A DNA stretch of 64,000 nt from Ochrobactrum sp. Marseille-Q0166. Its GTDB lineage: Bacteria; Pseudomonadota; Alphaproteobacteria; Rhizobiales; Rhizobiaceae. A model generated the notes under the pieces. It searched no databases. It was not told the DNA's origin and saw only the letters and a program-made list of their open reading frames with translations. Shown here piece after piece: positions 32,914 through 61,917 of this stretch (position 1 is the stretch's first letter; each line of letters starts with the position of its first letter). Both the position numbers and the translations under genes were made by a program. Location of the stretch: NCBI RefSeq assembly GCF_014397025.1, contig NZ_JACJUO010000003.1, positions 186,001-250,000 of the forward strand. Reading direction: 5' to 3'.

Positions 32914-35748
32914 CTAAATCATTATTTCTGATAACTGCTCATTCATCATATCATTAATAACCGCCGTCTTCAGAATCCGGCTTAGCGTATCACAGACATT
33001 CTGTACCTGCGCACGGTTGAAACGATCACTGCGATAAGTCACAATCAGCCTGATCTCGCGCTTATCACCCACATTTTCTTCCATAATTTCAAATTGCATG
33101 CCTAGCATGGCTTCATCTTTATCTGGATCGACCTGACGGTAGCGAATGGCGCCACCACGCCCGTCCGGCAAAGCACCGTTGAGCTTGTTTTGCGCATGAA
33201 TTTGCACATAGACCTCAAAGAAACGATCCCGCCCCGGAACAATCCCTAAAGATTCTTCGATAATATCAATCGGAATATCCGTATAAGGCATGGAACCAAC
33301 CACAATATCGCGGCAGGTTTCAATCAGTTCCGCCACGGTCATATCCGCATCAAACGGCACACGATGTGCGACCATAGTGGTAAAATAACCGACCGTGTCA
33401 TAGAAATGCGCATCTGTACGCCCGTCTGCCGAGGTACCGATAACAAGATCGGAGAGATTGCCGATTTTATGCAGGCTCAACGCAATCATGGCGTAGATCA
33501 CATTGAACAACGAAGCATTATTGGCGCGCGCCAGACTATACAGCCCTTCGGCAGTTTCCTGATCAATGGCGCAGTCCAGCCAGTCCACGTCACCGCTCTT
33601 TATTTCGGCATCGCTCGCTTCAGCAATTTGTGGCAGTTTCAGCCCATGCGTAGCCGTGCTCAGCATATTTTTCCAGTAATCAATATGGCGATGATCCAGC
33701 CCTTGTTCATATTGACGCCGGGCAAAGGCAGCCATTGACGGCGCAGCCTGCTCCCAGTGCGGTGCTTTGCCCTCAAGTCGCGCCTGGTAGGCTGTGCCAA
33801 GCTCATCCATCATCAGGTTCAGCGACCATTCATCGAGTGCAATATGATGGAATAGGAAAGACAGTATCTGCCGTCCGGTCTGCTCATCGCGCATGAAGCG
33901 CAGTCGTAATGGCAACTCCCGTGACAGATCAAACAAGTAGCCGACCTCCTCATGAAGCCTGACACCAATACTCTCGCGGCTGGTCCAGAACCACTGATAA
34001 TTATCCAGATCCTCCGCGGGCACAACGCGCTGATACACACTGTCACCGGAACGGTAGAAATGGCTGCGCAAACCGGCATGGCGCACCAGAATATCCTCGA
34101 AGGCACGGGCAAAAATCTGCTCATCAACCTCATCAAGGAAATCCAATGCAAATGGCAGGTTGAAAACCGCACCATAATCAAACACTTCATAACCGCGCCA
34201 CATCGACATTTGTGCAAAGGACAAAGGCACAAGTGTTTCTGAATGACCGGCACCGGCCTGATCCTGTACCTGTGCATCTGCCGGGCCGACCGGCACAATA
34301 CGGGATGCAAGACTTTCAGCCGTAGAATATTTAAAGAAATCGTTGAACTGCACTTCCAGCCCATGCTCGGTCAACAAGCGGCCGATCACCCTTGTTGCCA
34401 GCATGGAATGACCTCCGCAGTCAAAAAAGTCATCACCGGCCTGTATATCCGGATCACCAAGCGCACGGCGAAACTCCGACAAGATAATATCCGTATATGA
34501 ACTGCTTTCCTGTGCTGTCTCCGCCTGCCAAGCACTGCTTGGAGCAGCTGCCCACGCTTCGCCTTGCAGGGCAGCACTCAGCCGATCCAGCAAAAATTCA
34601 CCAGCCATACCCAGCAGTTTCGACCCCGTGCGCAATGTCAGCAAAAGCCGCTGATCATCTTTACGGCTGATATCCAGCGCAATATCGGCGGTCACCTCAT
34701 GGGATGGCAGCAGGAGCTTTTCCACCACCGGATAACCAGCCTGAAACGCCGTATCACTCTCACCGCTCAAAGAAAGATCAATTAAGGGCAGTGTCCTGTC
34801 GCCTCCCTGTCGCCTGCCCGCCGCTCCGCTCTTTTGCAAGACCTTACGAACCTGATCGGCCAGATGACCCGGAGAATCATGACGGGCAAACACAAAACTG
34901 CTCAGACTACCCGCATGATTAAGCCGCAGAACCAATCGCTCATGCGCACCGAAACGACTGATCAGCCGGGCAAATTGCTCGGCAATAAAACCACTGATCT
35001 GACTGGCATCCTGCAACACTGGTTTTTCTGAGCGCAGCGCATCTTGATGCAGCAATATCTGCCATGCCTGACCGACACCGGATTTAAACACCTCACCGGC
35101 GGTTGAAATCATACCCGCTTTTGTGCTGCGCTCCAACAATGGCAGCACAGCATCACCGCTCTGTGCAGACACAAAAACAGCTTTATATGTCTGTACCGGC
35201 AGAGATGGCTTTTCCCCGCGGCTCACTGCCGCAATCTTTTGCAGCAAAATACCGGCATCAATATTTTCGTCCAGAATATGATGAAGAATAAAGGCAATCT
35301 GCTTTTGCCCGCCTGCATTGGTCAGCAGCACCTGATAGGGTGCCTGATCCTCAAGATCGAACGGTGCTGCCTGCCGCACCAGCAACAGCTCGCTCACATG
35401 CTGCGCCGAGAGCAGCTGAATATTTTCCACACAAGGTACAGCATTATGTGCACGCGCCTTAACCAGTTCGAAATCATCATTAAACTGAAAGCGCATATTC
35501 AAGGCAGGCTCACTCTGCACCACGCGGCGCACAGCCCGTTCCAGCTGCGCCATATCCGCATCATCCGCCAGCCGCCACGCTGAAATCCGATTCAGCACCT
35601 GATGGGGTTGTTGCTGTTGCACCAACCAAATCTGCTGCTCATAATCAGACACGGTCGGTGCCGCCCGCTCTTCATCAGAATAATCCGCAGCACCTGAGAA
35701 CGGATCAATCCCGCCATTAATATGGGACAGGCTCGTGTCTTTTTCCAT
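32914..35748 (-). CDS. Siderophore NRPS, C*-PCP-C (VibF C-terminal half-like)
   Basis: A 944-residue NRPS without an adenylation domain. C1 (about 35-410) is short and its active motif reads HHILDEN (156-162) instead of HHxxxDG, so it may be inactive. The carrier domain has an intact DDFFDCGGHS with Ser448. C2 (about 505-944) has HHIALDEWS (634-642), with the catalytic His and Asp kept. This is the order of the last three domains of VibF. The carrier should hold the amino acid activated by the partner NRPS, and C2 should release the product onto a free amine; there is no thioesterase. AAGGGTGG precedes the ATG. Confidence 0.88.
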   Translation of the reverse strand: MEKDTSLSHINGGIDPFSGAADYSDEERAAPTVSDYEQQIWLVQQQQPHQVLNRISAWRLADDADMAQLERAVRRVVQSEPALNMRFQFNDDFELVKARAHNAVPCVENIQLLSAQHVSELLLVRQAAPFDLEDQAPYQVLLTNAGGQKQIAFILHHILDENIDAGILLQKIAAVSRGEKPSLPVQTYKAVFVSAQSGDAVLPLLERSTKAGMISTAGEVFKSGVGQAWQILLHQDALRSEKPVLQDASQISGFIAEQFARLISRFGAHERLVLRLNHAGSLSSFVFARHDSPGHLADQVRKVLQKSGAAGRRQGGDRTLPLIDLSLSGESDTAFQAGYPVVEKLLLPSHEVTADIALDISRKDDQRLLLTLRTGSKLLGMAGEFLLDRLSAALQGEAWAAAPSSAWQAETAQESSSYTDIILSEFRRALGDPDIQAGDDFFDCGGHSMLATRVIGRLLTEHGLEVQFNDFFKYSTAESLASRIVPVGPADAQVQDQAGAGHSETLVPLSFAQMSMWRGYEVFDYGAVFNLPFALDFLDEVDEQIFARAFEDILVRHAGLRSHFYRSGDSVYQRVVPAEDLDNYQWFWTSRESIGVRLHEEVGYLFDLSRELPLRLRFMRDEQTGRQILSFLFHHIALDEWSLNLMMDELGTAYQARLEGKAPHWEQAAPSMAAFARRQYEQGLDHRHIDYWKNMLSTATHGLKLPQIAEASDAEIKSGDVDWLDCAIDQETAEGLYSLARANNASLFNVIYAMIALSLHKIGNLSDLVIGTSADGRTDAHFYDTVGYFTTMVAHRVPFDADMTVAELIETCRDIVVGSMPYTDIPIDIIEESLGIVPGRDRFFEVYVQIHAQNKLNGALPDGRGGAIRYRQVDPDKDEAMLGMQFEIMEENVGDKREIRLIVTYRSDRFNRAQVQNVCDTLSRILKTAVINDMMNEQLSEIMI

Positions 35749-36108
35749 CTGACCACCCTTATGAAAGACCGGCTAAAGGATGCTGACCGGCTTTAAGATA
35801 TGCTACGGATTTTGCCTTCCGCGCCTCATTGCATTTGCGTAAAATTCTGAAATTCAAAGCGCAATATGCACGGATTAACACCACATTACGGTGGTGCATA
35901 AATTTAATATGACAATTTTCATCAGGTTTTATTAGGCAAGTCAAGTCCAGAAAATATAGACGTTGCTTAAATGCCAGATTAGCGGATTCCGCCTTGGCAC
36001 AAAACAGACACTGCGCTCGCCGGCAGTACATATTTCTTGCAGGAATGGTAGAGCAAGCGGCGGTTCTTCAACCGCCATTTGCTGTGATCAGCCCGGTATT
36101 TCCGGCTT
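35749..36108. other. Promoter-bearing gap before the C-PCP-C NRPS gene
   Basis: It holds an iron box (35910-35924), a hairpin CACCAC/GTGGTG (35879-35896) and a 7-bp stem with CTTC loop (36059-36076) just past the exporter gene. The last has no T run. The gap suggests that the NRPS gene has its own promoter. Confidence 0.5.
35910..35924. promoter_or_regulatory. Iron box (TGA-N9-TCA), candidate RirA site
   Basis: TGA, nine bases CAATTTTCA, TCA. It fits the iron-responsive operator consensus known for RirA in rhizobia and lies 162 bases upstream of the NRPS start. A 15-base pattern can occur by chance, but similar sites precede the other island operons. Confidence 0.5.
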
Positions 36109-37884
36109 TCAGTTGGTTGCGTGCCAGCTTTGCGTCTGCTGCTGGATCTGCCACATTTTGGCAAAACGACCACCGGATTTCAGCAACTCCGGCTGCGTGC
36201 CCTGCTCGGCAAGCTGACCGTCCTCAATCACCAGAATATGGTCTGCCGCAGCGATAGTTGAAAGCCGGTGCGCAATCACAATCACCGTGCGTTCGCGCAC
36301 CAGCGCATCAATTGCCGCCTGCACCGCCACCTCACTTTCCGTATCGAGGGCAGCGGTCGGCTCGTCCAGAATAACAATCGGTGCATCTTTGAGCATAGCG
36401 CGAGCAATGCTGATACGCTGACGCTCGCCGCCGGATAAACGTCCGCCGAGATCACCGATGCGGGTCTGATAGCCTTCCGGCAATCGGCTGATAAAGTCAT
36501 GGCAATGCGCCGCCCGTGCGGCGGATTCCACCTCTTCATCCGTGGCGGAGGGCCTGGCCATACGGATATTGTTCATCACCGTGTCGTCGAACAGATACAC
36601 ATCCTGAAATACCACGGAAACCAGACTATTGAGCACATCCGGCGCAATGGAGCGAATATCCTTACCCCCTATCCGCACCACACCTTGCTGCGGATCGGCA
36701 TGGCGCAGGATCAGCCGCGTTATTGTAGTTTTGCCTGAGCCCGAAGGTCCGACCAGTGCCGTCAGGCTGCGTTCCGTCAGAGTGGCACTTATGGTTTTGA
36801 GCGCCGCCTTTTCCGGCGCTCTGGCATAATGGAAACTCACATTATCAAAGCTCACATCAAAGGCTTCTGGCTTTTCCTCCGGCACTTGCTGCGGCAGCGG
36901 TTTAATCTCCAGCAGAATCTGGATTTTCTGCAATGCAGCTTCCATCAGATCAATAATTAGCGTCATCAGAATAACACTGCTCAAGGGCTCACTGAAGCGC
37001 ACAATGATCACCACCACAGCAGCCAGAACTGCGACTTCGAGTGAACCCTGAAAGACCAGAACAGCGCCGATGAGCACCACCAGTAAGAGCCCCAGCTCCA
37101 TAACCGATGCAATCATCAGATTGGGTTTTGCGCCTTTGCGCTGGCCAATCGCCTGTATTTTTTCCAGATGGTCGATACTGTGTTGCAGACGCACGGATTT
37201 TTTACCAGCACAACCGGCGGCACGCAGCACAGCCAGCCCTTGCGTATATTCCAGCATTTCAGCACTGGCTTGTGCATTAGCTTCGGCAAGCGCGCGCATA
37301 CCACGCCCGAAAGCAGGCCGTCTCCAGCGATAAAATGGCAGCAATACAGGAAAGATCAGCAGCAAGAGCAGTCCGATGCGCCAATCAATAAACAGTGTCA
37401 CCACAGCCACTGTCAAAGGCGTAATCACTGCATTGGCGATCAGATTGGCAATGGTCAGCACATAGGTCAGGTTTTCATCCACATTACCAAGCAGCGTGGC
37501 ATTGATTTCACCAGAATGTTTATCCTGCAACTCTTCCAGCGGAATACGACGCAATTGCTGCCCGAGTTCCGTGCGCAATTCATGGGTGTTGAGCACCATA
37601 TCACCGGCATAGTCGAAATTCTGCGCCATCCAGCGCACGACAGTGCTGGCAATCATAAAAGCAGTCATCAGACCTGCCCATGGAAGAGCTGTCGCCCACT
37701 GACCATCATGCATAATTGCACGAAACACTGGAATGATACATACCAGCGCCAGACCTTGAAGAACAGCCGCAAGACCGAGACCGATCATACTTGCACGCAG
37801 GCGCGGTGCACGATGACGGGCTGTCAGCATTAATTGCCGCCATGTATCCTTAAGCGGCGTAATTTTGGGTGTTATCCTGCTCAT
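36109..37884 (-). CDS. Half-size ABC exporter-fold transporter (YbtQ/BarB-like)
   Basis: A 591-residue protein with an N-terminal six-helix membrane domain and a C-terminal ATPase: Walker A GPSGSGKTT, signature LSGGERQRISIARA, Walker B IVILDEPTAALD. It overlaps its partner gene by 4 bases, so the two probably form a heterodimer in the inner membrane. Relatives in siderophore clusters export the siderophore (acinetobactin BarAB) or import it despite the exporter fold (yersiniabactin YbtPQ). The sequence alone does not decide. Confidence 0.85.
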   Translation of the reverse strand: MSRITPKITPLKDTWRQLMLTARHRAPRLRASMIGLGLAAVLQGLALVCIIPVFRAIMHDGQWATALPWAGLMTAFMIASTVVRWMAQNFDYAGDMVLNTHELRTELGQQLRRIPLEELQDKHSGEINATLLGNVDENLTYVLTIANLIANAVITPLTVAVVTLFIDWRIGLLLLLIFPVLLPFYRWRRPAFGRGMRALAEANAQASAEMLEYTQGLAVLRAAGCAGKKSVRLQHSIDHLEKIQAIGQRKGAKPNLMIASVMELGLLLVVLIGAVLVFQGSLEVAVLAAVVVIIVRFSEPLSSVILMTLIIDLMEAALQKIQILLEIKPLPQQVPEEKPEAFDVSFDNVSFHYARAPEKAALKTISATLTERSLTALVGPSGSGKTTITRLILRHADPQQGVVRIGGKDIRSIAPDVLNSLVSVVFQDVYLFDDTVMNNIRMARPSATDEEVESAARAAHCHDFISRLPEGYQTRIGDLGGRLSGGERQRISIARAMLKDAPIVILDEPTAALDTESEVAVQAAIDALVRERTVIVIAHRLSTIAAADHILVIEDGQLAEQGTQPELLKSGGRFAKMWQIQQQTQSWHATN

Positions 37885-39653
37885 TTGCGGTCTCCCATCA
37901 GAGCCCAGCCCTGGGCTTTTTCATAATGCCCCCACAAACGGGCATAGACAGCGCCATTGGCAACCAGCTGATCATGACGGCCTTTTTCACTCAAACGCCC
38001 ATGATCAAAGACCAGTATCTGATCAGCATCGCGGATGGTTGAAAGCCGGTGCGCAATCATCAATACCGTCTTGCCGCGCATCAGATGCGACAGCGCTGCC
38101 AGCAATGCCGCCTCATTTTCCGGGTCAGCAAAAGCCGTTGCCTCATCAAGGACAAGGATCGGACGGTTTTGCAAAATCGCACGGGCAATCGTAATCCGCT
38201 GGCGTTGTCCGCCAGAGAGAAACACACCACGCTCCCCTGTCAGCGTGTTATAACCGGAAGGCAGTTCCATGATGAATTCGTGCGCCTGCGCGGCTTTTGC
38301 CGCAGCGATCACATCCTCATCGGTGGCATCAGGCAGGCCTAAACGAATATTGGCCGCAATCGTATCGGCAAACAGAAAAGTATCCTGAAACACAAAAGCA
38401 ACCTGCTGCATCAGCACATCGGTTCTGATCTTACGGATATCCGCACCGCCAACAAAAATTGTTCCTTCACTCACATCCCAGAAACGCGGTATCAGCCGCG
38501 CGACTGTAGTTTTACCCGCACCAGACGGTCCGACAAGTGCAGTGATTGTGCCCGGCGCAGCCGTGAAACTGATATCCTGAAGGACCATTGCTCCATCAGC
38601 TGTATAGCGAAAACCGACTTGCTCAAAGCGCACGCTGGCATCAACGGGAATTTGCGCCGCATCAGCATCTGCTTCCGGCAGAGCCGGCTGGCTCATCACC
38701 TCATTAATACGGTGAACACTAATTTCTGTGCGGGCAATGAGATGTTTCAACGACATCAGCGGTAGCAGAGATTCCGCCATGCCGGTGCATATCAACAGCA
38801 CAGCCACCCATGTGGAAACAGCCAGTGCGTCATGCGTTACCAGCCAGCCGCCAAGCCAGACCATCACCGCTACTGTTGGCATGGGATTGAGAATAACCTG
38901 AGAAAAACGGGCAGGAAAACCGGCCATGCGATACCAGTTCAGCACAATATCCAGATAGACCTGCAAAGCACGCTGATAGCGCCCGAAAGTCGCCGTGCCG
39001 CTGTCGAAAGTACGTACCACCGGCATTGCTTGCACATATTCAACCACCGAGACACTGACCTGCTCACGGGCAAGGTTAAATTCATGCATTACCTCGCCGC
39101 TATTACGCATGGTGCGGGCAATGATCCCCAGCCCCACAACCAGCACAGCCGTGGCAGCGAGCGCCAGCCGCCAGTCGAGAATAAACAGCGCGATAAATGT
39201 CAGCACGGGCGATACATAGGCGCGGGCATAAAGGGGTGTACTGTCGGCAACAAAAGCATGCAGGTTTTTCACATCATCCATCATCACCTTGGCAAGCCCG
39301 GCCGCACCATTTTGCTGCACATAACCGAGCGGCACCTGTGCAAGATGATCGGACAAGTCTTTACGCAGCACGGTTTCCAGCCGGAAAGCTGCATAATGCG
39401 ATTGATTGAAAGCCAGCAATCGCAACACATAGGCTAAAGCGGTAAAAACGGCAGCAGCGGCAAGCGGCTGCCACGGAAAAGCCTGCCGACTGCCCAGCAG
39501 CAAATGCACCTCCCATGCCAGCGCAATAAGGGCAAGTACTGTGGCCAGCGATGCCAGTGCAGATAAAACCATGGCATAATAGATTTTACCGCGCACAGGA
39601 TTCATGATCTGCCATATACTTGGCACAGCTTGTGTTTTTTGAGGATCACTCAT
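37881..39653 (-). CDS. Half-size ABC exporter-fold transporter (YbtP/BarA-like)
   Basis: A 590-residue partner of the preceding entry. Membrane helices fill roughly residues 20-300. The ATPase domain shows GPSGAGKTT (about 375-383), LSGGQRQRITIARA and ILVLDEATAFADPENE. It lies 61 bases downstream of the binding-protein gene in the same direction, so it may be transcribed with the uptake genes. Confidence 0.85.
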   Translation of the reverse strand: MSDPQKTQAVPSIWQIMNPVRGKIYYAMVLSALASLATVLALIALAWEVHLLLGSRQAFPWQPLAAAAVFTALAYVLRLLAFNQSHYAAFRLETVLRKDLSDHLAQVPLGYVQQNGAAGLAKVMMDDVKNLHAFVADSTPLYARAYVSPVLTFIALFILDWRLALAATAVLVVGLGIIARTMRNSGEVMHEFNLAREQVSVSVVEYVQAMPVVRTFDSGTATFGRYQRALQVYLDIVLNWYRMAGFPARFSQVILNPMPTVAVMVWLGGWLVTHDALAVSTWVAVLLICTGMAESLLPLMSLKHLIARTEISVHRINEVMSQPALPEADADAAQIPVDASVRFEQVGFRYTADGAMVLQDISFTAAPGTITALVGPSGAGKTTVARLIPRFWDVSEGTIFVGGADIRKIRTDVLMQQVAFVFQDTFLFADTIAANIRLGLPDATDEDVIAAAKAAQAHEFIMELPSGYNTLTGERGVFLSGGQRQRITIARAILQNRPILVLDEATAFADPENEAALLAALSHLMRGKTVLMIAHRLSTIRDADQILVFDHGRLSEKGRHDQLVANGAVYARLWGHYEKAQGWALMGDRK

Positions 39654-39714: not shown

Positions 39715-40668
39715 TTATTTCGCTTTTTGCCATGCATCGAGCGCATCCAGCGTGTGTTTAGCGCTGGCAAAGCTCGGAGTGAAAACTTTGGAAGAATCCA
39801 AGTAGAGAACGCGCCCTTCTTTGGCCGGCTGTACAAATTGCTCCCAGCCCGGCACCACTTTTTCAACGGCTTTTTTGATCGTTGCCTCATCATGCTCGGT
39901 CTGTGCCCAGCTACTGATAATCACCAGCAAATCGGGATTGAGCGTACCGAAGCGCTCAGGACTGAGCTTCATCATCAAAGTCGGCTGGGCATTGGCCGCA
40001 GCACTTTCATCGACAGTGAATTTCTTGAACCCGGCATCTTCCAGCGCCTGTGTGGCACCGGAACCGCTGCCGATGACGCTCAGCTGATCAGCCACCAGAA
40101 TGAGCAGATAGGTCTTGCCTTTATGAGAATCTGCAGCCAGCGCTTTTGTTTCTCCTACCCGTTTCTGATAATCCGCCAACAGAGTTTCAAAAGTATTTTC
40201 GCGACCAGTTATGCGCGCCAGCTCTTGCTCGATAGCAAAATTGCTCAGGTCACCGCTGGCAAATTTCTGCAGATAAACCGGTGCAATACCGGAAAGCTGA
40301 CCAACTTTATCAAGGTCAAATTCAGTACCGACAATCACGTCAGGTTTTAGTGCTGTCAGCCGTTCCAGATCAATCTGACCGTTCAGACCAAAGCCTTTCG
40401 GTTTTGTTCTTCCTTTGCCAAGCACGGAGTCGATAAAATCCGCGCCGAACTGGTAAGAACCGTCATCATTGCGTCCGAGGCTGGCAACCGGATCCAGCCC
40501 AAGCTCAATCAGCGGCACTGTGGCCACAGGCTCATTCAGTACCACAATCCGTTTCGGCTCCAGCGGCAGACTAACTTCGCGGCCCGTGGCATCGGTCAGC
40601 GTGCGACTGTCTGCCATTGCAAGACTGCTCATGCCCAGAAGAAGTACCATTGTCAAAACTCTGATCAC
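39715..40668 (-). CDS. Periplasmic ferric-siderophore-binding protein (FecB/FhuD-type)
   Basis: A 317-residue class III binding protein. A signal peptide (MIRVLTMVLLLGMSSLAMA) is followed by TDATGREVSLPLEPKRIVVL, the typical opening of iron-siderophore binding proteins, and later LKPDVIVGTEFD. It has no lipobox Cys, so it should be soluble in the periplasm. It hands ferric siderophore to the two permeases encoded just upstream; 12 bases separate them. Confidence 0.9.
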   Translation of the reverse strand: MIRVLTMVLLLGMSSLAMADSRTLTDATGREVSLPLEPKRIVVLNEPVATVPLIELGLDPVASLGRNDDGSYQFGADFIDSVLGKGRTKPKGFGLNGQIDLERLTALKPDVIVGTEFDLDKVGQLSGIAPVYLQKFASGDLSNFAIEQELARITGRENTFETLLADYQKRVGETKALAADSHKGKTYLLILVADQLSVIGSGSGATQALEDAGFKKFTVDESAAANAQPTLMMKLSPERFGTLNPDLLVIISSWAQTEHDEATIKKAVEKVVPGWEQFVQPAKEGRVLYLDSSKVFTPSFASAKHTLDALDAWQKAK

Positions 40669-40680
40669 TGGAAGTTCCTT

Positions 40681-43561: not shown

Positions 43562-43644
43562 TATCGCCAACGGAGAAATTTTTATATAAATTCCAAACTG
43601 CCACATTTGATAGTTCACATATCAAACAGACAATCGTGACAAGC

Positions 43645-46164: not shown

Positions 46165-46180
46165 AAACTTGACCTCGGCA

Positions 46181-46702: not shown

Positions 46703-46731
46703 AAAATTCAACTGTTGACGATTCTATTTAA

Positions 46732-54800: not shown

Positions 54801-56229
54801 CACGAAACTCCTGCATTGCCACGCCGCCAAGCGGTACACTTTCACCCCGCCCCGCCAGATAAGCACGCTGCAATACAGTCAAAGGCTGGTTCTTCTTTGT
54901 CGGAGCCACAATCTGCACCTCGTCCAGATAATCAGGCACATCGGCCGCCTTCTTCAGACAGACGATAAAATCATCAAACAAATCGCTTACCCATTGCGCA
55001 GGCAAAGCGTCCAGCCGAATATCCCAATTAACCAGAAGACCGCCTTGATAAGCGGCCATCTGCGCATCCAGCGCCACTTGTGAGCCTTGCGAAACTGCCC
55101 AATCCATCACTCCGAAGACCTTCCGCACCATATCGGAAAACAGTGCTCCACCGTCCAGATCAAGGGCTGCGGTAAACACCACCGGCGCCAGTTGCGGCCT
55201 GCCGTTATGGCGGGAAAGATCGCGCATCACATTGACACCGGAATAGGCGGAATGTTCCATCTGGCTGATCAGTTTGGCATGCAGCTGTCGGCATAAATCC
55301 GCAAGTGTGGGCGCGGCATCCAGATCGATCTCTGCAATGAGAATATTGGCAAATTCTCCGGCAATATTGCCGACATCCTCCACCAGCGGTAAGCGCCAGA
55401 ACGTTGGCACATTCAGACGGAATTGCCGGTCACCGGTTTTGCGCCCCAAGGTCGTGGCGAACAGGCCAAGCATCATTGCTGCAGCGGTTATCCGATATCT
55501 GCGCGCCAGTTTTTGCAATGCCTTCCATTGTACAGCATCGATTTGCCGTGCAAGCCTGTGACTCTGCGGCTGCGCCATATCAGTGCGTAAGGGCAAAGTC
55601 GGTGCAGGTGGAATGTCCGTAAGCCTGGCACGCCACCATTTTTTATCACGCTCACGCGTCTTTTTCAGCGCACTATCCGAACGATACCGGTCGAGCCAGT
55701 CAAAATATGTTGCGGCCGGCTGACAGACAGTTTCCGGTGCCTGATAAAGTGCCGCCAGGTCATGCATCAGTAGACGGAAAGAAGACGGATCAATAGCAAT
55801 CATATCCGTATCAGCATGAAAGCGAAACTGCCCGTCGTCCAACAAGGTCAGAGAGAATCGCACTGCCCGCCCCGAGCACAAATCAAGCTTCTGATGTGTC
55901 CAGACCTGCCGCTTTTGTTCCAAAAAATCTTGCTTTTCGGATAAGGGCTTGCCGCGCAGATCATCAATTTCAAGCACCGGAAGTTGCGGCGTGTCCGCGA
56001 TTGTTTGCTGCCCGTCATCTGTTACGCGAAGTGCCATCATCGGATGCAGTTTTGCAAGCCGCTCAAGCGCCTGTTGCAGTCTGTCAGCATCAATGCCGCA
56101 TCCGTTAAACTCGGTATAAAGATGGGAGGCGACACCACCGAGCGGCGTCTGCTTATCACGGCCGACAAAACAAGCGGCCTGCATGGAATTTAACTCTCTG
56201 AACATCGTACCGTCTGCTGGATGGGTCAT
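51832..56229 (-). CDS. Siderophore NRPS, Cy-Cy-A-PCP* (VibF N-terminal half-like)
   Basis: A 1465-residue NRPS. Cyclization domain 1 has DMIAIDPSS (142-150) and domain 2 DAMIADGRS (582-590); both keep DxxxxDxxS. The adenylation domain (about 870-1377) shows YTSGTTGKPK and the late NGKPDRG with Lys1365. My hand-read pocket code is D-M-F-C-S-G-L-I-W-K. It is closest to Cys-type codes, but Ser or Thr cannot be excluded. The final carrier domain reads DFIGLGLRPQHL: Pro1427 stands where Ser should carry phosphopantetheine, so it cannot be loaded. The carrier in the C-PCP-C protein must serve instead. The ATG at 56229 follows AGGCGAG by 10 bases; a GTG at 56238 is possible. Confidence 0.9.
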   Translation of the reverse strand: MTHPADGTMFRELNSMQAACFVGRDKQTPLGGVASHLYTEFNGCGIDADRLQQALERLAKLHPMMALRVTDDGQQTIADTPQLPVLEIDDLRGKPLSEKQDFLEQKRQVWTHQKLDLCSGRAVRFSLTLLDDGQFRFHADTDMIAIDPSSFRLLMHDLAALYQAPETVCQPAATYFDWLDRYRSDSALKKTRERDKKWWRARLTDIPPAPTLPLRTDMAQPQSHRLARQIDAVQWKALQKLARRYRITAAAMMLGLFATTLGRKTGDRQFRLNVPTFWRLPLVEDVGNIAGEFANILIAEIDLDAAPTLADLCRQLHAKLISQMEHSAYSGVNVMRDLSRHNGRPQLAPVVFTAALDLDGGALFSDMVRKVFGVMDWAVSQGSQVALDAQMAAYQGGLLVNWDIRLDALPAQWVSDLFDDFIVCLKKAADVPDYLDEVQIVAPTKKNQPLTVLQRAYLAGRGESVPLGGVAMQEFREYRGIFDPAVLKCRLQEMVQRHACLRTWIEPEVFMQSIRADVQVNWEEIDYRGLGRAEAICLIEQQREAYAHEIMGAERAPWKIKLFRLPKLESEAEDYILFARFDAMIADGRSIAQLMRELFEGGSGVDQDEETAVAHYDDVQLKADADYWKDKLQAVEAPLRLPWSKPLDQIMQSRYGRESIVIPAAVFSALSRVGARKGLFKNSVLTALVLEVLSCRTEENSLCVGIPVAPQISATLANNSSFIAVNWQKQEGDFATRAAVLQQDVLEGLSHPAFSGVDIARLLFENTGSLPVLPVVITNGLSWPVLGQDSSAYLHSGQTQTPQVAMDIRFSVNAAGDLVFDIDYAREALDQAMVQDILQALSKAAHKIAASGEFAVSIRAITDLSHYCFNNMPMTAQDAPFLRRIADHIFAADNSKVALIYGQQRISYAELGGIVRRITGSLQARGLAQGSVVAVCLPRSPEHTAIVLACALSGIIWVPIDAASPQERLDYLLQNCCPDLVVGTEDVTTAHPVVTFEVLMTAEPVASSPLSPATLSLSESPAYYLYTSGTTGKPKCVVLTNRSTNNVITCTLENWQATERDVFISVTPLHHDMSVFDVLGALTVGATLVLPEAGEEKNAIRWNQLIAEHRVTLWCSVPAILEMLLACRRGDELTSLRLISQGGDYIKPVIIAELRELLPQARLVSLGGPTETTIWSIWHEIRAEDVRIIPYGIPLPENSYFVLDEQGEHCPAGVAGRIHTAGVNVALGYLESGEIIQTDFVTILDEKGTELRAFKTGDRGRYRHDGVIVFDSRVNGYVKIRGVRVSLPDVENELITHPQLRQIMVVDIGDQKQGEAVLGAVYVVESGAQLSSVDLRDFARERLPQSHVPSHFMQLDELPFSRNGKPDRGTARKILEAVKTAEKTKPAVPEISPAQRKVLETYLDVLKPAVAQPVCATADFIGLGLRPQHLKLIAARLSESFSVSLSPAQLMRCRNAQDVLALLNA

Positions 56230-56571
56230 GATAATCACACTCGCCTAAAAAACTTGATTGCTTTATTCAAGTTATGAATATATGATAAAAACATTCAAGT
56301 TTTAATTTGGCCTGTGTGCAGAACAAAACTGAATGGTATCGCCGGTACATAGCCTCTTCCAGCTGGAGATTTCCCAATACCGGACATGGGCAGGAGGTGC
56401 ATATCAGCGAAACGAAAATCGCTTATCCGCAAATTCTCAAACCAAAGAACCCGATTGTTTAGCGAATAAATTGTGAGGGCGTTTCATTCCGATCTGAAAT
56501 TTCTGCCCGATGCCGCAGCCGATCCCCTCTGCGCTGCAGGTATTTTCCCTTACATCCGTCACAGGAGTGTA
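56230..56571. other. Divergent promoter region of the NRPS and DHB operons
   Basis: It contains the dyad iron box at 56251-56273 near the NRPS start and a partial repeat of its half-site (TTCAAGTTTTAA, about 56293). No gene is supported; the frame running from 56473 into entC is taken as leader because a good start lies at 56572. Confidence 0.5.
56251..56273. promoter_or_regulatory. Dyad iron box between NRPS and DHB genes
   Basis: AACTTGA (56251-56257) and TCAAGTT (56267-56273) are perfect arms around nine bases, giving TGA-N9-TCA. This is the best RirA-type site in the window. It lies 22 bases before the NRPS start and about 300 before entC, so it may control both. Confidence 0.65.
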
Positions 56572-57753
56572 ATGAGCATGAAAGCAAGTCACCTCAGAAC
56601 CGATGTGTCTGAAGAACAATCTGATGTTAATGGCGAAAGGTTTTTCTCGTTTACGTCCGGAAATAAAGAACTGCGCACCCGCGGTCTGCACCGCGAAATT
56701 AACACTCCTGCAGAAAACGGCAGCGATACCAATAGTGTTTTTCAACGCACTATAAAAGCTGCATTGAGAGAAGCGCAAAAAAACGGACAGGATAATCCGG
56801 TCATTGTCGGCGCTATTCCCTTCAACCCTGCAGAACCATCCTGTCTTTTCGTCCCGCAATCTTATGAATGGCACGATCTTGCACCTGCCGTTTCTTTCGC
56901 CGCCCCTGCTGTTTTAAAACCCGCCGCACAGAAAAGCCTCCCCGATGAAGCCGGTTTCAAACGTGCGGTGGAACAGGCAATTGCCAATTTCCGCCTCAGC
57001 GATGTACGCAAGGCCGTGCTTTCAGTGATGCGTGAGATCACGTTCGAACAGGATGTCGATACGCAGCAAATGCTCGCCAATCTGCGCGCGCAAAACCGCG
57101 AGGGCTATCAGTTCAGCTTGTTATTGGATGATGGCGCGGTGCTTGTCGGTGTCAGCCCTGAACTTATAATCCGTAAAAGCGGCAGCAATATCATTTCCAA
57201 TCCGCTGGCAGGTTCGGCAAAACGCATGAGCGATCCGCTTGCCGATCAGCACAATGCACAGCAACTCAACCACTCTGAAAAAGACCTTTATGAACACCGG
57301 TTGGTGATTGAGGACATTGCCGCCCATTTGCAACCTGTTTGCGATAGGCTGGATGTGCCGCACCGGCCTTCGCTGATCAGCACAGCCGCGCTCTGGCATC
57401 TTTCAACGCGCATTCACGGCACCATTGCCGATCAGTCGCTGACGGCCTTGCAGCTTGCCTGTCTGCTGCATCCGACACCGGCGGTTTGCGGCTATCCGAC
57501 CGAACGCGCCAGACGGCTGATCCATTTTATCGAACCTTTCGAGCGGCGCTTTTTCACCGGCATGGTTGGCTGGTCAGATGCGCAGGGCAACGGGGAATGG
57601 GTGGTGACCATCCGCTGCGGCAGCGTGCGGCGCAATATTGTGCAGCTTTTTGCCGGTGCAGGCATTGTTGAGGCCTCCGACCCCGCCTCGGAATGGAACG
57701 AGGTGCAAACCAAACTCGGCACGATGCTGCGCGCTTGTGGCCTGAATAATTAG
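56572..57753 (+). CDS. Isochorismate synthase (EntC-like)
   Basis: A 393-residue chorismate-utilising enzyme, close to EntC length. Visible marks are [59 protein letters not shown] and [18 protein letters not shown]. It makes isochorismate, the first step to 2,3-dihydroxybenzoate. AGGAG stands 4 bases before the ATG at 56572 and fixes the start; the frame extends 33 codons upstream without a site. It heads the DHB operon. Confidence 0.93.
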
Positions 57754-57836: not shown

Positions 57837-59474
57837 ATGACAATTGAATTCACACGCTGGCCGCAGGAAAGAGCCGATCTCTATCGCCGCAAAGGTTACT
57901 GGATTGATCAGCCACTCACTCGAATTCTCCTGAACCAGAGCCTTACACGACCGGATGCCCCGGCCATTCTCTGCGGTGAGCGCTGCATCAGCTATGCCAT
58001 GCTCGATCAGCTCTCCGGCAACCTGGCGACCCGCCTTCGACTTGCCGGTATCAGTCAAAGCGATACTGCCCTGGTACAACTGCCCAATATTGCGGAATTT
58101 TACATCGTATTTTTCGCATTGCTTAAAGCGGGCATTGTGCCGGTTAATGCGATTTACTCCCATCGCAGACTTGAGCTCACCGCCTATGCCCGCCAGATCA
58201 AGCCAAAACTGATCATAGCTACCAAACAGCATGAGCTGTTTAAGGATAACCGCTTTCTGGAGGAACTGGATGCGGAAGGTCTGCGCCCACAACTCACACT
58301 GCTTGCCGGTGATGACAGCGATGCGCATGAAGCCAACGAACTCGGTAACTGGCTGCAAGAACCGGATGGCAGCATCATTGCCCCGACGCTGGCACCGACA
58401 CCGGCGGATGAAGTTGCCTTTTTCCAGCTTTCCGGCGGCAGTACCGGCACACCCAAACTCATCCCCCGCACCCATAATGATTATGATTACAGCGTACGTG
58501 CCAGTGCGGATATCTGCGAATTAACACCGCAGACGCGGTTTCTCTGCGCGCTGCCCGCAGCCCATAATTATGCCCTCAGCTCTCCCGGCGCACTTGGCGT
58601 CTTTCATGCCGGCGGCTGCGTTATTCTTGCGCCAAATCCTGAACCGCTTGGCTGTTTCACCCTGATTGAGCGTCACCGCATTGATATGGCTGCCCTTGTA
58701 CCGCCAGCCGTAGCGCTTTGGTTGCAGGCTGCCCCCGAACATCAGGAAAAGCTGCATTCGCTCAGGCTGATTCAGGTGGGCGGCGCCAGTTTTGCCGAGG
58801 TTCTGGCACGCAAAGTTCCAGAAATTCTGCACTGCCGTTTGCAGCAGGTTTTCGGCATGGCGGAAGGTCTGGTGAATTATACCAGAGCGGGAGATGATGA
58901 AGAATTTGTCTTCACCACACAAGGCAGACCGATCAGTCCCGATGATGAAATCCGCATTACTGATGAAAACGGCAATGAGCTGCCTGATGGTGAGGCCGGT
59001 ATGCTTGCCACACGCGGGCCCTATACATTTTGCGGCTATTATAACAGCCCTGAGCATAATGCCCGTATCTTCGACAAGGAAGGTTTCTATTATTCGGGTG
59101 ATATTGTTGAACGCAATGCGCAGGGCTATCTGCGTGTTGTCGGCCGAGTGAAAGATCAGATCAATCGCGGCGGTGAGAAAGTCGCCTCGGAAGAAATCGA
59201 AAATCTGATCGTTCTGCATGATGATGTGACCCATGCTGCCCTTGTGGCGATGGATGATGAGCTGCTGGGCGAGAAGAGCTGCGCCTTTGTCGTCTCCCGC
59301 AACCCGCAACTGAAAGCACCTACCCTGCGCCGTCATCTCGCAGCACTGGGTATCGCCGAATATAAATTGCCGGATCGCATTCAGTTCATCGAACATATGC
59401 CACTCACACCTGTCGGCAAAATCGACAAGAAACATCTGCGTTCGCTTCTCGCACAAAATGCCAGCGCGCTCTGA
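57837..59474 (+). CDS. 2,3-dihydroxybenzoate-AMP ligase (EntE-like)
   Basis: A 545-residue adenylating enzyme with FFQLSGGSTGTPKLIPRTHNDY (P-loop), YYSGDIVERNAQGYLRVVGRVKDQINRGGEK and a C-terminal PVGKIDKK with the catalytic Lys. It activates DHB and loads it onto the aryl carrier domain of the isochorismatase protein. The length and order match EntE. It begins 83 bases after entC. Confidence 0.93.
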   Translation: MTIEFTRWPQERADLYRRKGYWIDQPLTRILLNQSLTRPDAPAILCGERCISYAMLDQLSGNLATRLRLAGISQSDTALVQLPNIAEFYIVFFALLKAGIVPVNAIYSHRRLELTAYARQIKPKLIIATKQHELFKDNRFLEELDAEGLRPQLTLLAGDDSDAHEANELGNWLQEPDGSIIAPTLAPTPADEVAFFQLSGGSTGTPKLIPRTHNDYDYSVRASADICELTPQTRFLCALPAAHNYALSSPGALGVFHAGGCVILAPNPEPLGCFTLIERHRIDMAALVPPAVALWLQAAPEHQEKLHSLRLIQVGGASFAEVLARKVPEILHCRLQQVFGMAEGLVNYTRAGDDEEFVFTTQGRPISPDDEIRITDENGNELPDGEAGMLATRGPYTFCGYYNSPEHNARIFDKEGFYYSGDIVERNAQGYLRVVGRVKDQINRGGEKVASEEIENLIVLHDDVTHAALVAMDDELLGEKSCAFVVSRNPQLKAPTLRRHLAALGIAEYKLPDRIQFIEHMPLTPVGKIDKKHLRSLLAQNASAL

Positions 59475-59541: not shown

Positions 59542-60411
59542 ATGACAATTCCTAAAATTGCTGATTATGCAATTCCGCAGCCTGCGACCTATCCTGCCAA
59601 TAAAACTGCATGGACCATCAATTCATCCCGCGCTGTTTTGCTGATCCATGATATGCAGCGCTATTTCCTGCGTTTCTATAATGCGGAAGGCACATTGATG
59701 CAGACTTTGGTGCACAATCTGGTGCGCCTGCGCCAATGGGCAAAAAGCCATAACATCCCCGTCATTTATACCGCCCAGCCCCATAATCAGTCCGCTGAAG
59801 ACCGCGCTTTGCTGAACGATATGTGGGGGCCCGGTCTAACCGTGGCAGACCCGGAAGCGCAGCAGATTATTGATGAGTTGGCACCGGACAGCAGTGATCT
59901 GGTGCTGACCAAATGGCGTTACAGCGCTTTTCAGCGCTCCCCCCTGAAACAGCAAATGAAAGAATGGAACCGCGACCAGCTGATTATCGGCGGGGTCTAT
60001 GCCCATATCGGCTGCATGATCACGGCGGTTGAAGCTTTTATGAGCGATATACAGCCATTTTTGGTGGGCGATGCGATAGCAGATTTTTCCGAGGATGAGC
60101 ACCGGCTCGCGCTAAAATATGTTGCTACACGCTGCGGTTGCGTGTTCGGGACCGATAATCTGGTGCAGGAGCCTGCCACAGGCACCACCCGCAGCTGGCT
60201 GCAGCAGCGTGTACTGCAACTAGTTGAGGACGCCAGTGAGTTTGATGCCGATGAAAACCTGATTTTTTACGGGCTGGACTCGCTTAAAGTCATGAAATTT
60301 TCTGCAGAGCTGAAAGAGCGCGGGCTGGACATCAGCTTTGAGGAACTGGCACTTGACCCCACCCTGACAGCATGGTGGGCACTAATTGAAAAGCAGCAAC
60401 AGGCAGCCTGA
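59542..60411 (+). CDS. Isochorismatase with aryl carrier domain (EntB-like)
   Basis: A 289-residue bifunctional protein. Residues 1-210 are the isochorismatase (LLIHDMQRYFLRFY, VLTKWRYSAF, GVYAHIGCMITAVEAF). Residues about 215-285 are an aryl carrier domain with FYGLDSLKVM, whose Ser247 is the phosphopantetheine site, so this carrier is intact. It hydrolyses isochorismate and carries DHB to the cyclization domains. Confidence 0.93.
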   Translation: MTIPKIADYAIPQPATYPANKTAWTINSSRAVLLIHDMQRYFLRFYNAEGTLMQTLVHNLVRLRQWAKSHNIPVIYTAQPHNQSAEDRALLNDMWGPGLTVADPEAQQIIDELAPDSSDLVLTKWRYSAFQRSPLKQQMKEWNRDQLIIGGVYAHIGCMITAVEAFMSDIQPFLVGDAIADFSEDEHRLALKYVATRCGCVFGTDNLVQEPATGTTRSWLQQRVLQLVEDASEFDADENLIFYGLDSLKVMKFSAELKERGLDISFEELALDPTLTAWWALIEKQQQAA

Positions 60412-60413
60412 AA

Positions 60414-61193
60414 ATGAGCCTTCTGGATATCAATAAATACGCCTCTTTTGCTGGTAAGCGTGTCATCATCACCGGTGCTGCACAAGGCATCGGGCGCTGT
60501 ATTGCCGAGCAATTCATACGTCAGGGTGCCCGTGTCACCGGCATTGACTGCAAAGCTGCGGATCAGAGCAGCGGCTGCAGTTTCCAGTTGCTGCAAGCCG
60601 ATATTGCCGATGCAGCAGCAGTGAGAAAACTCTGCGATCATTTGAAAGCGGAAGATAATACGCTGGATATATTGGTCAATGTTGCAGGCGTTTTGAAACC
60701 CGGCACCACGGAGAGCCTTTCCGCCGATGACTGGCAAACCTGCATTGACGTGAATGCCAGCGGCGCATTTTACATGCTGCATAACTGGGCGCCGGTCTTT
60801 CGCAAACAAAGACACGGGGCGATTGTCAATGTTGCCTCCAATGCCGCCCATGTGCCGCGCATCAATATGGCGGCCTATTGCGCCTCTAAAGCGGCAATGA
60901 CCAGCCTCAGCCATTGCGTAGCACTGGAGCTTGCACCTTATGGTGTTCGCTGCAATGTGGTTTCCCCCGGATCAACCCGCACGCCCATGCTGGCAGACAT
61001 GTTGCAGAACAACTCCGGTGAACAGCAGCTGATTGACGGCCTGCCGGCGCAGTTCAAACTTGGCATACCGCTCGGCAAAATTGCGGTACCGGATGACATT
61101 GCCAACGTTGTGCTGTTTCTGGCCTCTGATCTGGCAGGGCACGTGACCATGCAGGATATTGTTGTAGACGGAGGAGCAACTCTTGGCTGCTGA
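60414..61193 (+). CDS. 2,3-dihydro-2,3-dihydroxybenzoate dehydrogenase (EntA-like)
   Basis: A 259-residue short-chain dehydrogenase with GAAQGIGRCIAEQF (NAD site), NVASNAAHVPR and catalytic YCASKAA. It oxidises the dihydrodiol to DHB. It starts 2 bases after the isochorismatase stop and overlaps the next gene by 11 bases. Confidence 0.92.
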   Translation: MSLLDINKYASFAGKRVIITGAAQGIGRCIAEQFIRQGARVTGIDCKAADQSSGCSFQLLQADIADAAAVRKLCDHLKAEDNTLDILVNVAGVLKPGTTESLSADDWQTCIDVNASGAFYMLHNWAPVFRKQRHGAIVNVASNAAHVPRINMAAYCASKAAMTSLSHCVALELAPYGVRCNVVSPGSTRTPMLADMLQNNSGEQQLIDGLPAQFKLGIPLGKIAVPDDIANVVLFLASDLAGHVTMQDIVVDGGATLGC

Positions 61194-61917
61194 AGGACAT
61201 TCCCCTGCTCGACCGGACATGCAACCGTTTAGACTTGCACCATGGCCGGAGCTGGCCGGAGATACCAGCCTGTTTATGTGCCGCTATCCCTGCAGTGATC
61301 TGCCCCTGAACCCGGATTTTCGTGATATGGAAGCGGTGACTTTGCCGGATACATTTAAGTCTTTTGCCCCGCGCCGCAAAGCAGAATTTATTGCAGGACA
61401 GCGCTGCGCTCGTGAAGCACTGCGTACAATAACCGGTATGGTTGCCGCCCCTCACCGCACGGCCAATCATGTGCCGGTGTGGCCGCTGGGCACGACAGGC
61501 TCCATATCCCATTGTAACGGCTATGCCCTCGCCATTGCTGCAGAAAATGTCCGCTATTGCGCTGTAGGCATTGATATTGAAACGCTCCAAACTAAAGACG
61601 AGGCAGAAAAAATTGCTGCTCTGGTTTTAACCCGGGATGAAATGCAACGCCTGCCACAGCAGTGCAAAGGCCTTGCCGTCACCACAGCCTTTTCAGCCAA
61701 AGAGAGTCTTTATAAAGCGCTCTACCCGCAGATAGGCCGTTTCTACGGATTTTATGCAGCAGAAATGACAGTGGACTTCAGCAAACGCGCAGGCCGGTTA
61801 AGGCTCACAAAAGATTGGTCGCAACACTGGCGACGTGGTCAGGAAATCGCTGTACACTTACATTTCATGCAAAATTTTGTGCTGACATGCGTAGCTCTGC
61901 CTGCTGGTTCTATATAA
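61183..61917 (+). CDS. 4'-phosphopantetheinyl transferase (EntD-like), TTG start
   Basis: A 244-residue Sfp/EntD-type transferase. The magnesium/CoA motifs are AVGIDIETL and FSAKESLYKALYP. It adds phosphopantetheine to the aryl carrier domain and the working PCP. The start is a TTG at 61183, supported by GGAGGAG ending 6 bases upstream within entA; the first ATG (61219) lacks such a site. The 11-base overlap with entA suggests coupled translation. Confidence 0.88.
   Translation: MAAEGHSPARPDMQPFRLAPWPELAGDTSLFMCRYPCSDLPLNPDFRDMEAVTLPDTFKSFAPRRKAEFIAGQRCAREALRTITGMVAAPHRTANHVPVWPLGTTGSISHCNGYALAIAAENVRYCAVGIDIETLQTKDEAEKIAALVLTRDEMQRLPQQCKGLAVTTAFSAKESLYKALYPQIGRFYGFYAAEMTVDFSKRAGRLRLTKDWSQHWRRGQEIAVHLHFMQNFVLTCVALPAGSI

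What the first reader, a model, noticed from the sequence alone, without database searches (positions are those of the whole stretch)
32914..61917. Siderophore island predicting a DHB-azoline-hydroxydiaminopropane siderophore
Seen: complete DHB genes (EntC, E, B-carrier, A, PPTase), a rhizobactin-like four-gene set for N-acetyl-N-hydroxy-1,3-diaminopropane, and two NRPS genes with Cy-Cy-A-PCP* and C*-PCP-C. Known: VibF (Cy-Cy-A-C-PCP-C) makes a DHB-oxazoline and its last C domain releases it onto an amine; RhbA/B/E/D make the hydroxamate arm of rhizobactin 1021. Inferred: the product is DHB, one Ser/Thr/Cys-derived ring and a C3 diamine hydroxamate, comparable with fimsbactin (putrescine) and pre-acinetobactin (N-hydroxyhistamine). 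I know of no described siderophore with exactly this combination.
Basis: partly seen in the sequence, partly recalled or inferred. Interest (0 to 1): 0.88.

Follow-up and report, generated by a model that had tools for sequence, protein, structure and literature searches.

The report
Predicted new mixed-ligand iron-scavenger gene island
A plasmid-sized replicon carries one gene island that should make an unusual iron-gathering molecule by joining the front half of one known pathway (catechol plus a threonine-made ring) to the side arm of another (an N-hydroxy three-carbon diamine), a pairing we did not find described.

Summary
In detail: 32914-61917 has a full 2,3-dihydroxybenzoate set, a RhbA/RhbB/RhbD/RhbE set and two NRPS genes, Cy-Cy-A-PCP* and C*-PCP-C, plus exporter, importer and receptor genes. 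The A-domain code (DMFCSGLIW) is one residue from that of 74 of 84 relatives (DMFCAGLIW), so the ring is most likely a threonine-derived methyl-oxazoline. The arm genes are 57-71% identical to S. meliloti 1021 rhbABDE; the monooxygenase, like RhbE, lies outside a 40-member histamine clade, despite a 'histamine monooxygenase' label. The genome has no IucA/IucC synthetase, no histidine-decarboxylase-like gene but RhbB, and no condensation domain found outside these two genes. Of 80 related loci, 38 carry histidine decarboxylase plus monooxygenase, 40 a VibH-like amide synthase, 2 neither, 0 RhbA or RhbD. The releasing C domain falls outside both groups. Best reading: a third nucleophile class, product DHB-methyloxazoline-CO-NH-(CH2)3-N(OH)Ac, C16H21N3O6, [M+H]+ 352.150. 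Which nitrogen is acylated is unproven; some evidence favours the isomer. No product has been seen, and the island was found in no other genome. I judge it a new variant of a known kind.

The parts
32914..35748 (-). NRPS 2, C*-PCP-C: inactive first C, carrier that holds the DHB-Thr/oxazoline thioester, releasing C domain
   Evidence: Condensation and PP-binding Pfam hits; CGGHSML and HHIALDE motifs, no HHxxxD in C*; 39% identical over 964 aligned positions to the G118 homologue
36109..37884 (-). ABC exporter half 1 (MsbA-type), likely siderophore export
   Evidence: ABC_membrane + ABC_tran; function inferred from position
37881..39653 (-). ABC exporter half 2
   Evidence: ABC_membrane + ABC_tran
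39715..40668 (-). Periplasmic ferric-siderophore-binding protein
   Evidence: Peripla_BP_2
40681..41748 (-). FecCD permease 2 (start probably ATG at 41748)
   Evidence: FecCD; start read from sequence
41745..42758 (-). FecCD permease 1
   Evidence: FecCD
42755..43618 (-). Ferric-siderophore importer ATPase
   Evidence: ABC_tran, best NCBIfam FecE-like
43711..46164 (-). TonB-dependent receptor with N-terminal STN domain
   Evidence: TIGR01783 above cut-off; STN under its Pfam cut-off; nearest solved relatives FemA 591 bits and BauA 554 bits, next kind 125
46165..46932 (.). Divergent promoter region with four TGA-N9-TCA (RirA-box-like) sites at 46299, 46387, 46686, 46734
   Evidence: 4 sites against 0.22 expected, 0 of 2000 dinucleotide shuffles as high; none is the longer TTGA-N9-TCAA
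46933..48312 (+). RhbA-type diaminobutyrate--2-oxoglutarate transaminase
   Evidence: PRK06938 712 bits, cut-off 671; 70% to S. meliloti RhbA
48309..49826 (+). RhbB-type 2,4-diaminobutyrate decarboxylase, gives 1,3-diaminopropane
   Evidence: Best NCBIfam model is RhbB, 710 bits but under its cut-off of 900; 57% to S. meliloti RhbB
49868..50458 (+). RhbD-type acetyltransferase
   Evidence: Acetyltransf_8; 71% to S. meliloti RhbD
50462..51766 (+). RhbE-type flavin N-monooxygenase for 1,3-diaminopropane
   Evidence: 61% to RhbE; outside the 40-member histamine clade
51832..56238 (-). NRPS 1, Cy-Cy-A-PCP*: activates Thr, condenses with DHB, cyclises
   Evidence: Pfam; code DMFCSGLIWK; DxxxxD in both Cy, Pro in place of carrier Ser
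56239..56472 (.). Divergent promoter region with a perfect palindrome AACTTGA-N9-TCAAGTT (56251-56273) and a second TGA-N9-TCA at 56283
   Evidence: 2 sites against 0.07 expected, 5 of 2000 shuffles as high
56473..57753 (+). EntC, isochorismate synthase
   Evidence: TIGR00543 above cut-off
57837..59474 (+). EntE, 2,3-dihydroxybenzoate-AMP ligase
   Evidence: Both NCBIfam equivalogs above cut-off
59542..60411 (+). EntB, isochorismatase with aryl carrier (GLDSLKV)
   Evidence: Isochorismatase + PP-binding; carrier Ser present
60414..61193 (+). EntA, 2,3-dihydro-DHB dehydrogenase
   Evidence: Two NCBIfam equivalogs above cut-off
61183..61917 (+). Phosphopantetheinyl transferase (EntD-like)
   Evidence: 4PPT_N + ACPS; EntD model is best in NCBIfam but under its cut-off

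Best explanation
One pathway makes one mixed catechol-oxazoline-hydroxamate siderophore. EntC, EntB and EntA make 2,3-dihydroxybenzoate; EntE loads it on the EntB carrier. The A domain of NRPS 1 activates L-Thr and loads it in trans on the only live PCP, in NRPS 2. The Cy pair makes DHB-Thr and cyclises it to a 5-methyl-oxazoline, with Cy2 and Cy1 sharing the two steps as proposed for VibF and BasD. In parallel RhbA and RhbB make 1,3-diaminopropane, RhbE hydroxylates one nitrogen and RhbD acetylates that nitrogen. The last C domain of NRPS 2 releases the oxazoline acyl group onto the free amine of N-acetyl-N-hydroxy-1,3-diaminopropane. Predicted product: C16H21N3O6, [M+H]+ 352.150, one-to-one ferric complex near m/z 405.06. 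The ABC pair exports it; the receptor, binding protein and FecCD system import the iron complex; RirA-type boxes repress under iron. Shown here: gene content, motifs, tree positions, absence of alternative partners in the genome. Inferred: substrates, acylated nitrogen, product, export, regulation.
For: Complete, intact gene set. A code one residue from that of 74 of 84 relatives, among them A. tumefaciens B6, V. furnissii and Pseudomonas loci; Thr loading by the homologous BasA is stated in PMC12005286 (passages read). Arm genes 57-71% to S. meliloti rhbABDE, whose NMO substrate is listed as 1,3-diaminopropane in PMC7347517 (passages read). Monooxygenase outside the histamine clade, 97/95 support. 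No IucA/IucC in the genome, so the arm has no rhizobactin-type partner; the only hit to a histidine decarboxylase query is RhbB itself; the only Condensation matches are four, all in these two genes. In 80 relatives the release partner is HDC plus monooxygenase (38) or VibH (40), never both, neither in 2; the window has neither. Releasing C domain outside both groups. Receptor nearest to FemA and BauA; BauA takes up preacinetobactin (title and start of abstract of PMC6300358 in a listing), FemA is named ferric-mycobactin receptor (mycobactin chemistry recalled).
Against: No product has been observed. The cluster is a singleton: 0 of 80 kept loci (of 153 relatives found; the other 73 were not seen) carry RhbA or RhbD, so linkage is not backed by conservation. 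TIGR04439 'histamine N-monooxygenase' scores 698 bits on the monooxygenase, 2 below its cut-off, and the protein is about as close to enzymes of histidine-decarboxylase loci (up to 61%) as to RhbE (61%). In the tree RhbE branches nearer to the histamine clade (90/82) than the window protein does, so the two form no clade. The Cy2-A part joins the histamine-type lineage (98 local support, FastTree with long-branch warnings), and at 18 columns that part the two C-domain groups the window matches the histamine type at 11, the VibH type at 5, neither at 2; that lineage acylates N-hydroxyhistamine. Position 299 of the code is Ser here, Ala in 81 and Asn in 3 of 84 relatives. RhbB is under its NCBIfam cut-off.
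Confidence: 0.62

Rival explanations
1. Same building blocks, other linkage: the C domain acylates the hydroxylamine nitrogen of N-hydroxy-diaminopropane, as in the acinetobactin lineage with N-hydroxyhistamine, and the acetyl group sits on the far amine. The product is an isomer of the same mass, pre-acinetobactin-like, and could rearrange to an isoxazolidinone.
For: Cy2-A lineage joins the histamine types; 11 of 18 group-defining C-domain columns are histamine-like; the BasB C domain transfers to N-hydroxyhistamine (PMC12005286 passages).
Against: The acetyltransferase is 71% identical to RhbD, whose pathway gives an N-hydroxy-N-acetyl group, as in schizokinen (PMC6562677 passages). The releasing C domain falls outside the histamine group, and a clade of the window with the six Xenorhabdus/Photorhabdus histamine-type rows is mildly rejected, p-AU 0.024.
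Confidence: 0.17
2. Branched or iterative product, fimsbactin-like: two DHB-Thr units, one as oxazoline and one as ester or amide, on the same diaminopropane hydroxamate.
For: A paper on peptide branching by iterative non-linear NRPSs is cited for fimsbactin (title in the reference list of PMC12005286; not read); one A domain and one PCP do not exclude it.
Against: No thioesterase, second live carrier or second A domain was found in the two NRPS genes. The acinetobactin NRPSs of like architecture add one Thr.
Confidence: 0.08
3. Ser or mixed Ser/Thr oxazoline instead of Thr alone.
For: Position 299 differs from all 84 relatives; VibF takes some Ser in vivo (PMC5635690 passages).
Against: The other eight of nine compared positions match the commonest code of the relatives, some of which are Thr users.
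Confidence: 0.08
4. Two separate products: a plain DHB-Thr oxazoline or its amide, and a hydroxamate made by other enzymes.
For: Arm genes and NRPS genes are separate modules on the DNA.
Against: No IucA/IucC synthetase found in the genome, no VibH-like C domain; the arm genes sit between the two NRPS genes.
Confidence: 0.04
5. Acinetobactin/pseudomonine-type product with N-hydroxyhistamine.
For: NCBIfam label TIGR04439.
Against: No histidine-decarboxylase-like gene in the genome except the RhbB-like gene itself; monooxygenase outside the histamine clade; one annotated S. meliloti RhbE carries the same label.
Confidence: 0.01

Closest known systems
Acinetobactin (bas) and pseudomonine-type NRPS clusters
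   Same: Tandem Cy, Thr-type A domain, separate C*-PCP-C with a releasing C domain, N-monooxygenase nearby; receptor related to BauA. Product names of the Pseudomonas loci are recalled
   Different: No histidine decarboxylase; arm is diaminopropane with an acetyltransferase; monooxygenase and C domain outside their groups
Agrobactin, fluvibactin, vibriobactin and other VibH-bearing clusters
   Same: Same NRPS 1 architecture in many of them, A code one residue away, DHB genes up to 72% identical. Agrobactin for A. tumefaciens B6 is recalled
   Different: No VibH-like amide synthase, so no sign of a spermidine or norspermidine backbone
Rhizobactin 1021 / schizokinen (rhbABCDEF)
   Same: RhbA, B, D and E homologues, D and E adjacent in the same order
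   Different: IucA/IucC synthetases (RhbC, RhbF) not found in the genome; citrate backbone replaced by the DHB-oxazoline acyl group (inferred)
Fimsbactin (fbs), Acinetobacter
   Same: Mixed catechol-hydroxamate siderophore (PMC7595644 passages); N-acetyl-N-hydroxy-diamine arm on an aryl-oxazoline (recalled)
   Different: Putrescine arm and Ser ring there (recalled); the putrescine hydroxylase 7us3 scores 311 bits by phmmer, against 535 for RhbE and 508 for BasC by tblastn (scores of different programs)

Membership tests
Tandem-Cy aryl-oxazoline NRPS (VibF/BasABD/agrobactin kind) | Two Cy domains, each with DxxxxD | tested here: met
   DMIAID and DAMIAD; 84 of 84 relatives likewise
Tandem-Cy aryl-oxazoline NRPS (VibF/BasABD/agrobactin kind) | A domain with the code of this family | tested here: met
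   DMFCSGLIW against DMFCAGLIW in 74 of 84; one position differs from all 84
Tandem-Cy aryl-oxazoline NRPS (VibF/BasABD/agrobactin kind) | Inactive C, live PCP, active releasing C | tested here: met
   Motifs: C* lacks HHxxxD here and in 48 of 51 relatives; PCP Ser in 69 of 69; C HHxxxD in 65 of 68
Acinetobactin/pseudomonine cluster | Histidine decarboxylase | tested here: not met
   Only the RhbB-like gene found in own genome
Acinetobactin/pseudomonine cluster | Monooxygenase in the histamine clade | tested here: not met
   40 histamine-type rows on one side, 97/95, window outside
Agrobactin/vibriobactin cluster | VibH-like stand-alone amide synthase | tested here: not met
   All four Condensation matches in the genome lie in the two NRPS genes
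Rhizobactin 1021/schizokinen cluster | RhbA, B, D, E homologues | tested here: met
   57-71% identity
Rhizobactin 1021/schizokinen cluster | IucA/IucC-type synthetases RhbC and RhbF | tested here: not met
   0 matches to PF04183 in own genome; 2 of 14 control genomes rang
Fimsbactin cluster | Putrescine-specific hydroxylase and Ser A domain | tested here: inconclusive
   Window enzymes fit RhbE and Thr better; fbs NRPSs were not aligned
Any of these siderophores | Chemical structure of the product | not testable with these tools
   Needs LC-MS/NMR

The most novel reading that the evidence does not exclude
A third release class of the aryl-oxazoline siderophore NRPS family: next to hydroxyhistamine and polyamine/VibH, a whole precursor cassette from the citrate-based rhizobactin pathway has been captured, so that an NRPS condensation domain replaces the IucA/IucC synthetase as the acceptor of N-acetyl-N-hydroxy-1,3-diaminopropane, giving an undescribed siderophore.
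Probability: 0.65. Interest if true: 0.6.

Novelty: new variant of a known kind. Interest (0 to 1): 0.52.

Why it matters
If true, it shows a natural swap between the two great siderophore logics (NRPS and IucA/IucC) at one point, the releasing nucleophile, and gives a simple rule for reading this family's clusters: the amine genes beside the NRPS name the end group. It also predicts one exact mass to look for, and a natural condensation domain that takes an N-hydroxy-N-acetyl diamine, of use in NRPS engineering. It also flags an annotation habit: a 'histamine N-monooxygenase' label on an S. meliloti RhbE.

Tried and rejected
Histamine as nucleophile (NCBIfam label): rejected by the missing histidine decarboxylase and the tree. 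Polyamine/VibH type: rejected, no such domain found. Rhizobactin-type end product: rejected, no IucA/IucC. Cys-derived thiazoline: rejected by the code (Cys codes recalled and read from the PchE and BmdB alignments). Chance RirA boxes: shuffles make them unlikely in both divergent promoters, but whether the genome has RirA was not tested. Host by 16S: no match in own genome, left open. Host by DNA similarity of a C1 stretch and of the window's left part: mainly rhizobial plasmid records at low identity, save the phn match; a C2 stretch was fetched but only its GC taken. Look for the same combination in other genomes: NRPS 1 in 1 of 35 of the genus (own genome), 4 of 150 relatives (own; G118; two with a generic A domain at about 30%), 1 of 398 of the phylum sample (own); NRPS 2 in 6 of 397 of the order and 1 of 385 of the class, own genome counted. 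Of the five other order genomes with NRPS 2, four have a VibH-like gene in the stretches read; the fifth (G238) lies on a 14.7-kb contig without one; none showed the arm genes above 120 bits. Structure prediction and fold search were not used: they would not decide the acylated nitrogen.


Full report
WHAT IS THERE. The window is bases 186001-250000 of contig C3 of a three-contig genome (C1 2.31 Mb and C2 1.56 Mb; C3 by difference about 0.57 Mb). The reported stretch, 32914-61917, starts and ends exactly on ORF boundaries. Order from the left: NRPS 2 (C*-PCP-C), two ABC exporter halves, binding protein, two FecCD permeases, importer ATPase, TonB-dependent receptor (all minus strand), then RhbA, RhbB, RhbD, RhbE (plus), NRPS 1 (Cy-Cy-A-PCP*, minus), EntC, EntE, EntB, EntA and a phosphopantetheinyl transferase (plus). 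An ORF with a weak regulator hit follows at 62087-62677 (no Pfam hit).

CATALYTIC PARTS. Both Cy domains keep DxxxxD, as do 84 of 84 relatives. The tail of NRPS 1 resembles a carrier but has Pro at residue 1430, where the phosphopantetheine Ser is expected; 83 of 84 relatives have Pro there too, so this is an old feature of the family, not decay in this genome. The first C domain of NRPS 2 lacks HHxxxD here and in 48 of 51 relatives whose alignment covers the place; the PCP motif GGxS is present here and in 69 of 69, the HHxxxD of the last C domain here and in 65 of 68. The aryl carrier of EntB has its Ser (GLDSLKV). One live PCP therefore serves the pathway.

RELATIVES OF THE NRPS. A scan of GTDB species genomes gave 153 relatives, of which the tool kept the best 80. 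Scored with the A. baumannii histidine decarboxylase (over 250 bits), the G118 VibH-like protein (over 150 bits) and the window's own genes, 38 loci have histidine decarboxylase and the same 38 have the monooxygenase; 40 have a VibH-like gene; 2 (Photorhabdus, L085 and L087, on short stretches) have neither; none has both; none has RhbA or RhbD. Loci reach 10 kb to each side at most and some are shorter, so a distant arm cassette would be missed. The window has neither partner but the four rhb genes instead.

RING AMINO ACID. Positions 235-331 of the PheA numbering (mapping by eye on the alignments; numbering recalled) give DMFCSGLIW in the window. Of 84 relatives with a comparable A domain (80 plus L010, L093, L094, L095), 74 have DMFCAGLIW, 5 DMFVAGLIW, 3 DMYSNGIIW, 1 DMSCAGLIW and 1 (A. 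baumannii BasA) DMFSAGLIW. The 74 include A. tumefaciens B6, Vibrio furnissii, Paracoccus and Pseudomonas loci. BasA loads L-Thr on BasB (PMC12005286, passages); fluvibactin has one Thr-derived oxazoline (PMC13180887, passages); VibF slightly prefers Thr but accepts Ser (PMC5635690, passages). Thr is the best call; the Ser at position 299 is unique in this comparison.

THE ARM. Identity to S. meliloti 1021 pSymA: RhbA 70%, RhbB 57%, RhbD 71%, RhbE 61%. RhbD and RhbE are neighbours in both. One annotated S. meliloti plasmid calls its RhbE 'putative histamine N-monooxygenase' and the window protein scores 698 against the same model's cut-off of 700, so the label does not discriminate. In a 45-row tree (39 relatives, RhbE and the window, plus AngU, two cyanobacterial and one haloarchaeal enzyme from IucA/IucC-type clusters; diaminobutyrate genes are visible beside one cyanobacterial enzyme by name and two transaminase-family genes beside the other, none beside the haloarchaeal one) the 40 histamine-type rows, so named from the histidine decarboxylase in their loci or from AngU's annotation, form one side of a branch (97/95); window and RhbE fall on the other side. 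They are not sisters: RhbE branches nearer to the histamine clade (90/82) than the window. RhbE's substrate is listed as 1,3-diaminopropane in PMC7347517 (passages); schizokinen's arm as 1-amino-3-(N-hydroxy-N-acetyl)-aminopropane in PMC6562677 (passages).

NO OTHER PARTNER. The genome search shows no IucA/IucC domain (0 of 1; 2 of 14 control genomes, E. coli and Haloferax, ring), no histidine-decarboxylase-like gene except RhbB itself, and four Condensation matches, all in the two NRPS genes. The arm and the DHB-oxazoline thus seem to have only each other.

THE RELEASING DOMAIN. A 68-row PCP-C tree puts 36 histamine-type rows on one side of a branch and 31 VibH-type rows on one side of another (both 100/100); the window sits on a long branch outside both, 44-52% and 44-55% identical to them. 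That fits a different nucleophile. Against a simple reading: at 18 columns that separate the groups the window is histamine-like at 11, VibH-like at 5, neither at 2, and the Cy2-A region joins the Xenorhabdus/Photorhabdus histamine-type rows (98 local support; FastTree with long-branch warnings). Forcing that same clade on the C domain lowers the log-likelihood by 33, p-AU 0.024, a mild rejection of a group chosen after seeing the other tree. The NRPS core thus probably came from the histamine side and its release end diverged. Whether it still acylates a hydroxylamine nitrogen (rival) or the free amine (preferred, because the RhbD pathway puts the acetyl on the hydroxylated nitrogen) is open; both give C16H21N3O6, 351.143 (the ferric value printed there, 405.063, is corrected here to 405.062 for electron masses).

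UPTAKE AND CONTROL. The receptor's nearest solved relatives are FemA, named ferric-mycobactin receptor (591 bits), and BauA (554 bits; 555 for a chain named ligand-gated channel protein); the next kind is at 125 bits. BauA serves preacinetobactin (title and start of abstract of PMC6300358 in a listing); that mycobactin has an aryl-oxazoline and hydroxamates is recalled. Both divergent promoters carry TGA-N9-TCA sites in excess: four in 46165-46932 (0 of 2000 shuffles as high; none in the longer form TTGA-N9-TCAA) and two in 56239-56472 (5 of 2000), of 45 in the whole window. This is the palindrome predicted for RirA targets and found in 5 of 10 RirA peaks in S. fredii (PMC8822346, passages). 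RirA control is inferred.

DISTRIBUTION. In its genus only this genome has NRPS 1 (1 of 35). Phn genes at 6040-14231 are 93% identical to a Haematobacter plasmid, transposase genes lie at 28559-29569 and 32073-32603, and GC dips to 44% at 30-32 kb: a patchwork replicon, and the island was probably gained by transfer (inference).

LITERATURE. Searches of the open-licence library (listings, of which some were cut: 25 of 45 papers, 20 of 73, 10 of 18; passages of the papers named above; no paper read whole) showed no siderophore that combines DHB-oxazoline with an N-hydroxy-diaminopropane arm. Paywalled papers and MIBiG were not searched, so novelty is provisional.

VERDICT. It is a new combination within known enzyme families rather than a new kind of system.

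Noticed in passing
window 6040-14231: C-P lyase (phn) operon 93% identical to a plasmid of Haematobacter massiliensis, probably a recent transfer between distant alphaproteobacteria.
   Followed up: no
window 28559-32603: A transposase gene with HTH_38 and rve domains and a short IS5-family transposase ORF in a low-GC stretch just left of the island.
   Followed up: partly
window 24592-26712: One ORF joins an HTH and Sugar-bind regulator to a Dak1 kinase domain, with Dak2 next to it; a regulator-kinase fusion.
   Followed up: no
L094 (E. coli plasmid NZ_AP022088.1): An IncFIB/IncI plasmid carries a Cy-Cy-A NRPS, two further condensation-domain genes (one VibH-like) and uptake genes but no DHB genes annotated in the 32 kb read, perhaps borrowing DHB from host enterobactin synthesis.
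   Followed up: partly
L010 3014-4060: The G118 relative has an O-methyltransferase inside its VibH-type cluster and its two Cy domains on separate genes.
   Followed up: no
NCBIfam TIGR04439: The 'histamine N-monooxygenase' label is applied to an S. meliloti RhbE, listed elsewhere as a diaminopropane enzyme.
   Followed up: yes
own genome: No 16S rRNA match was found in a genome rated 99.76% complete; perhaps withheld or missing.
   Followed up: no
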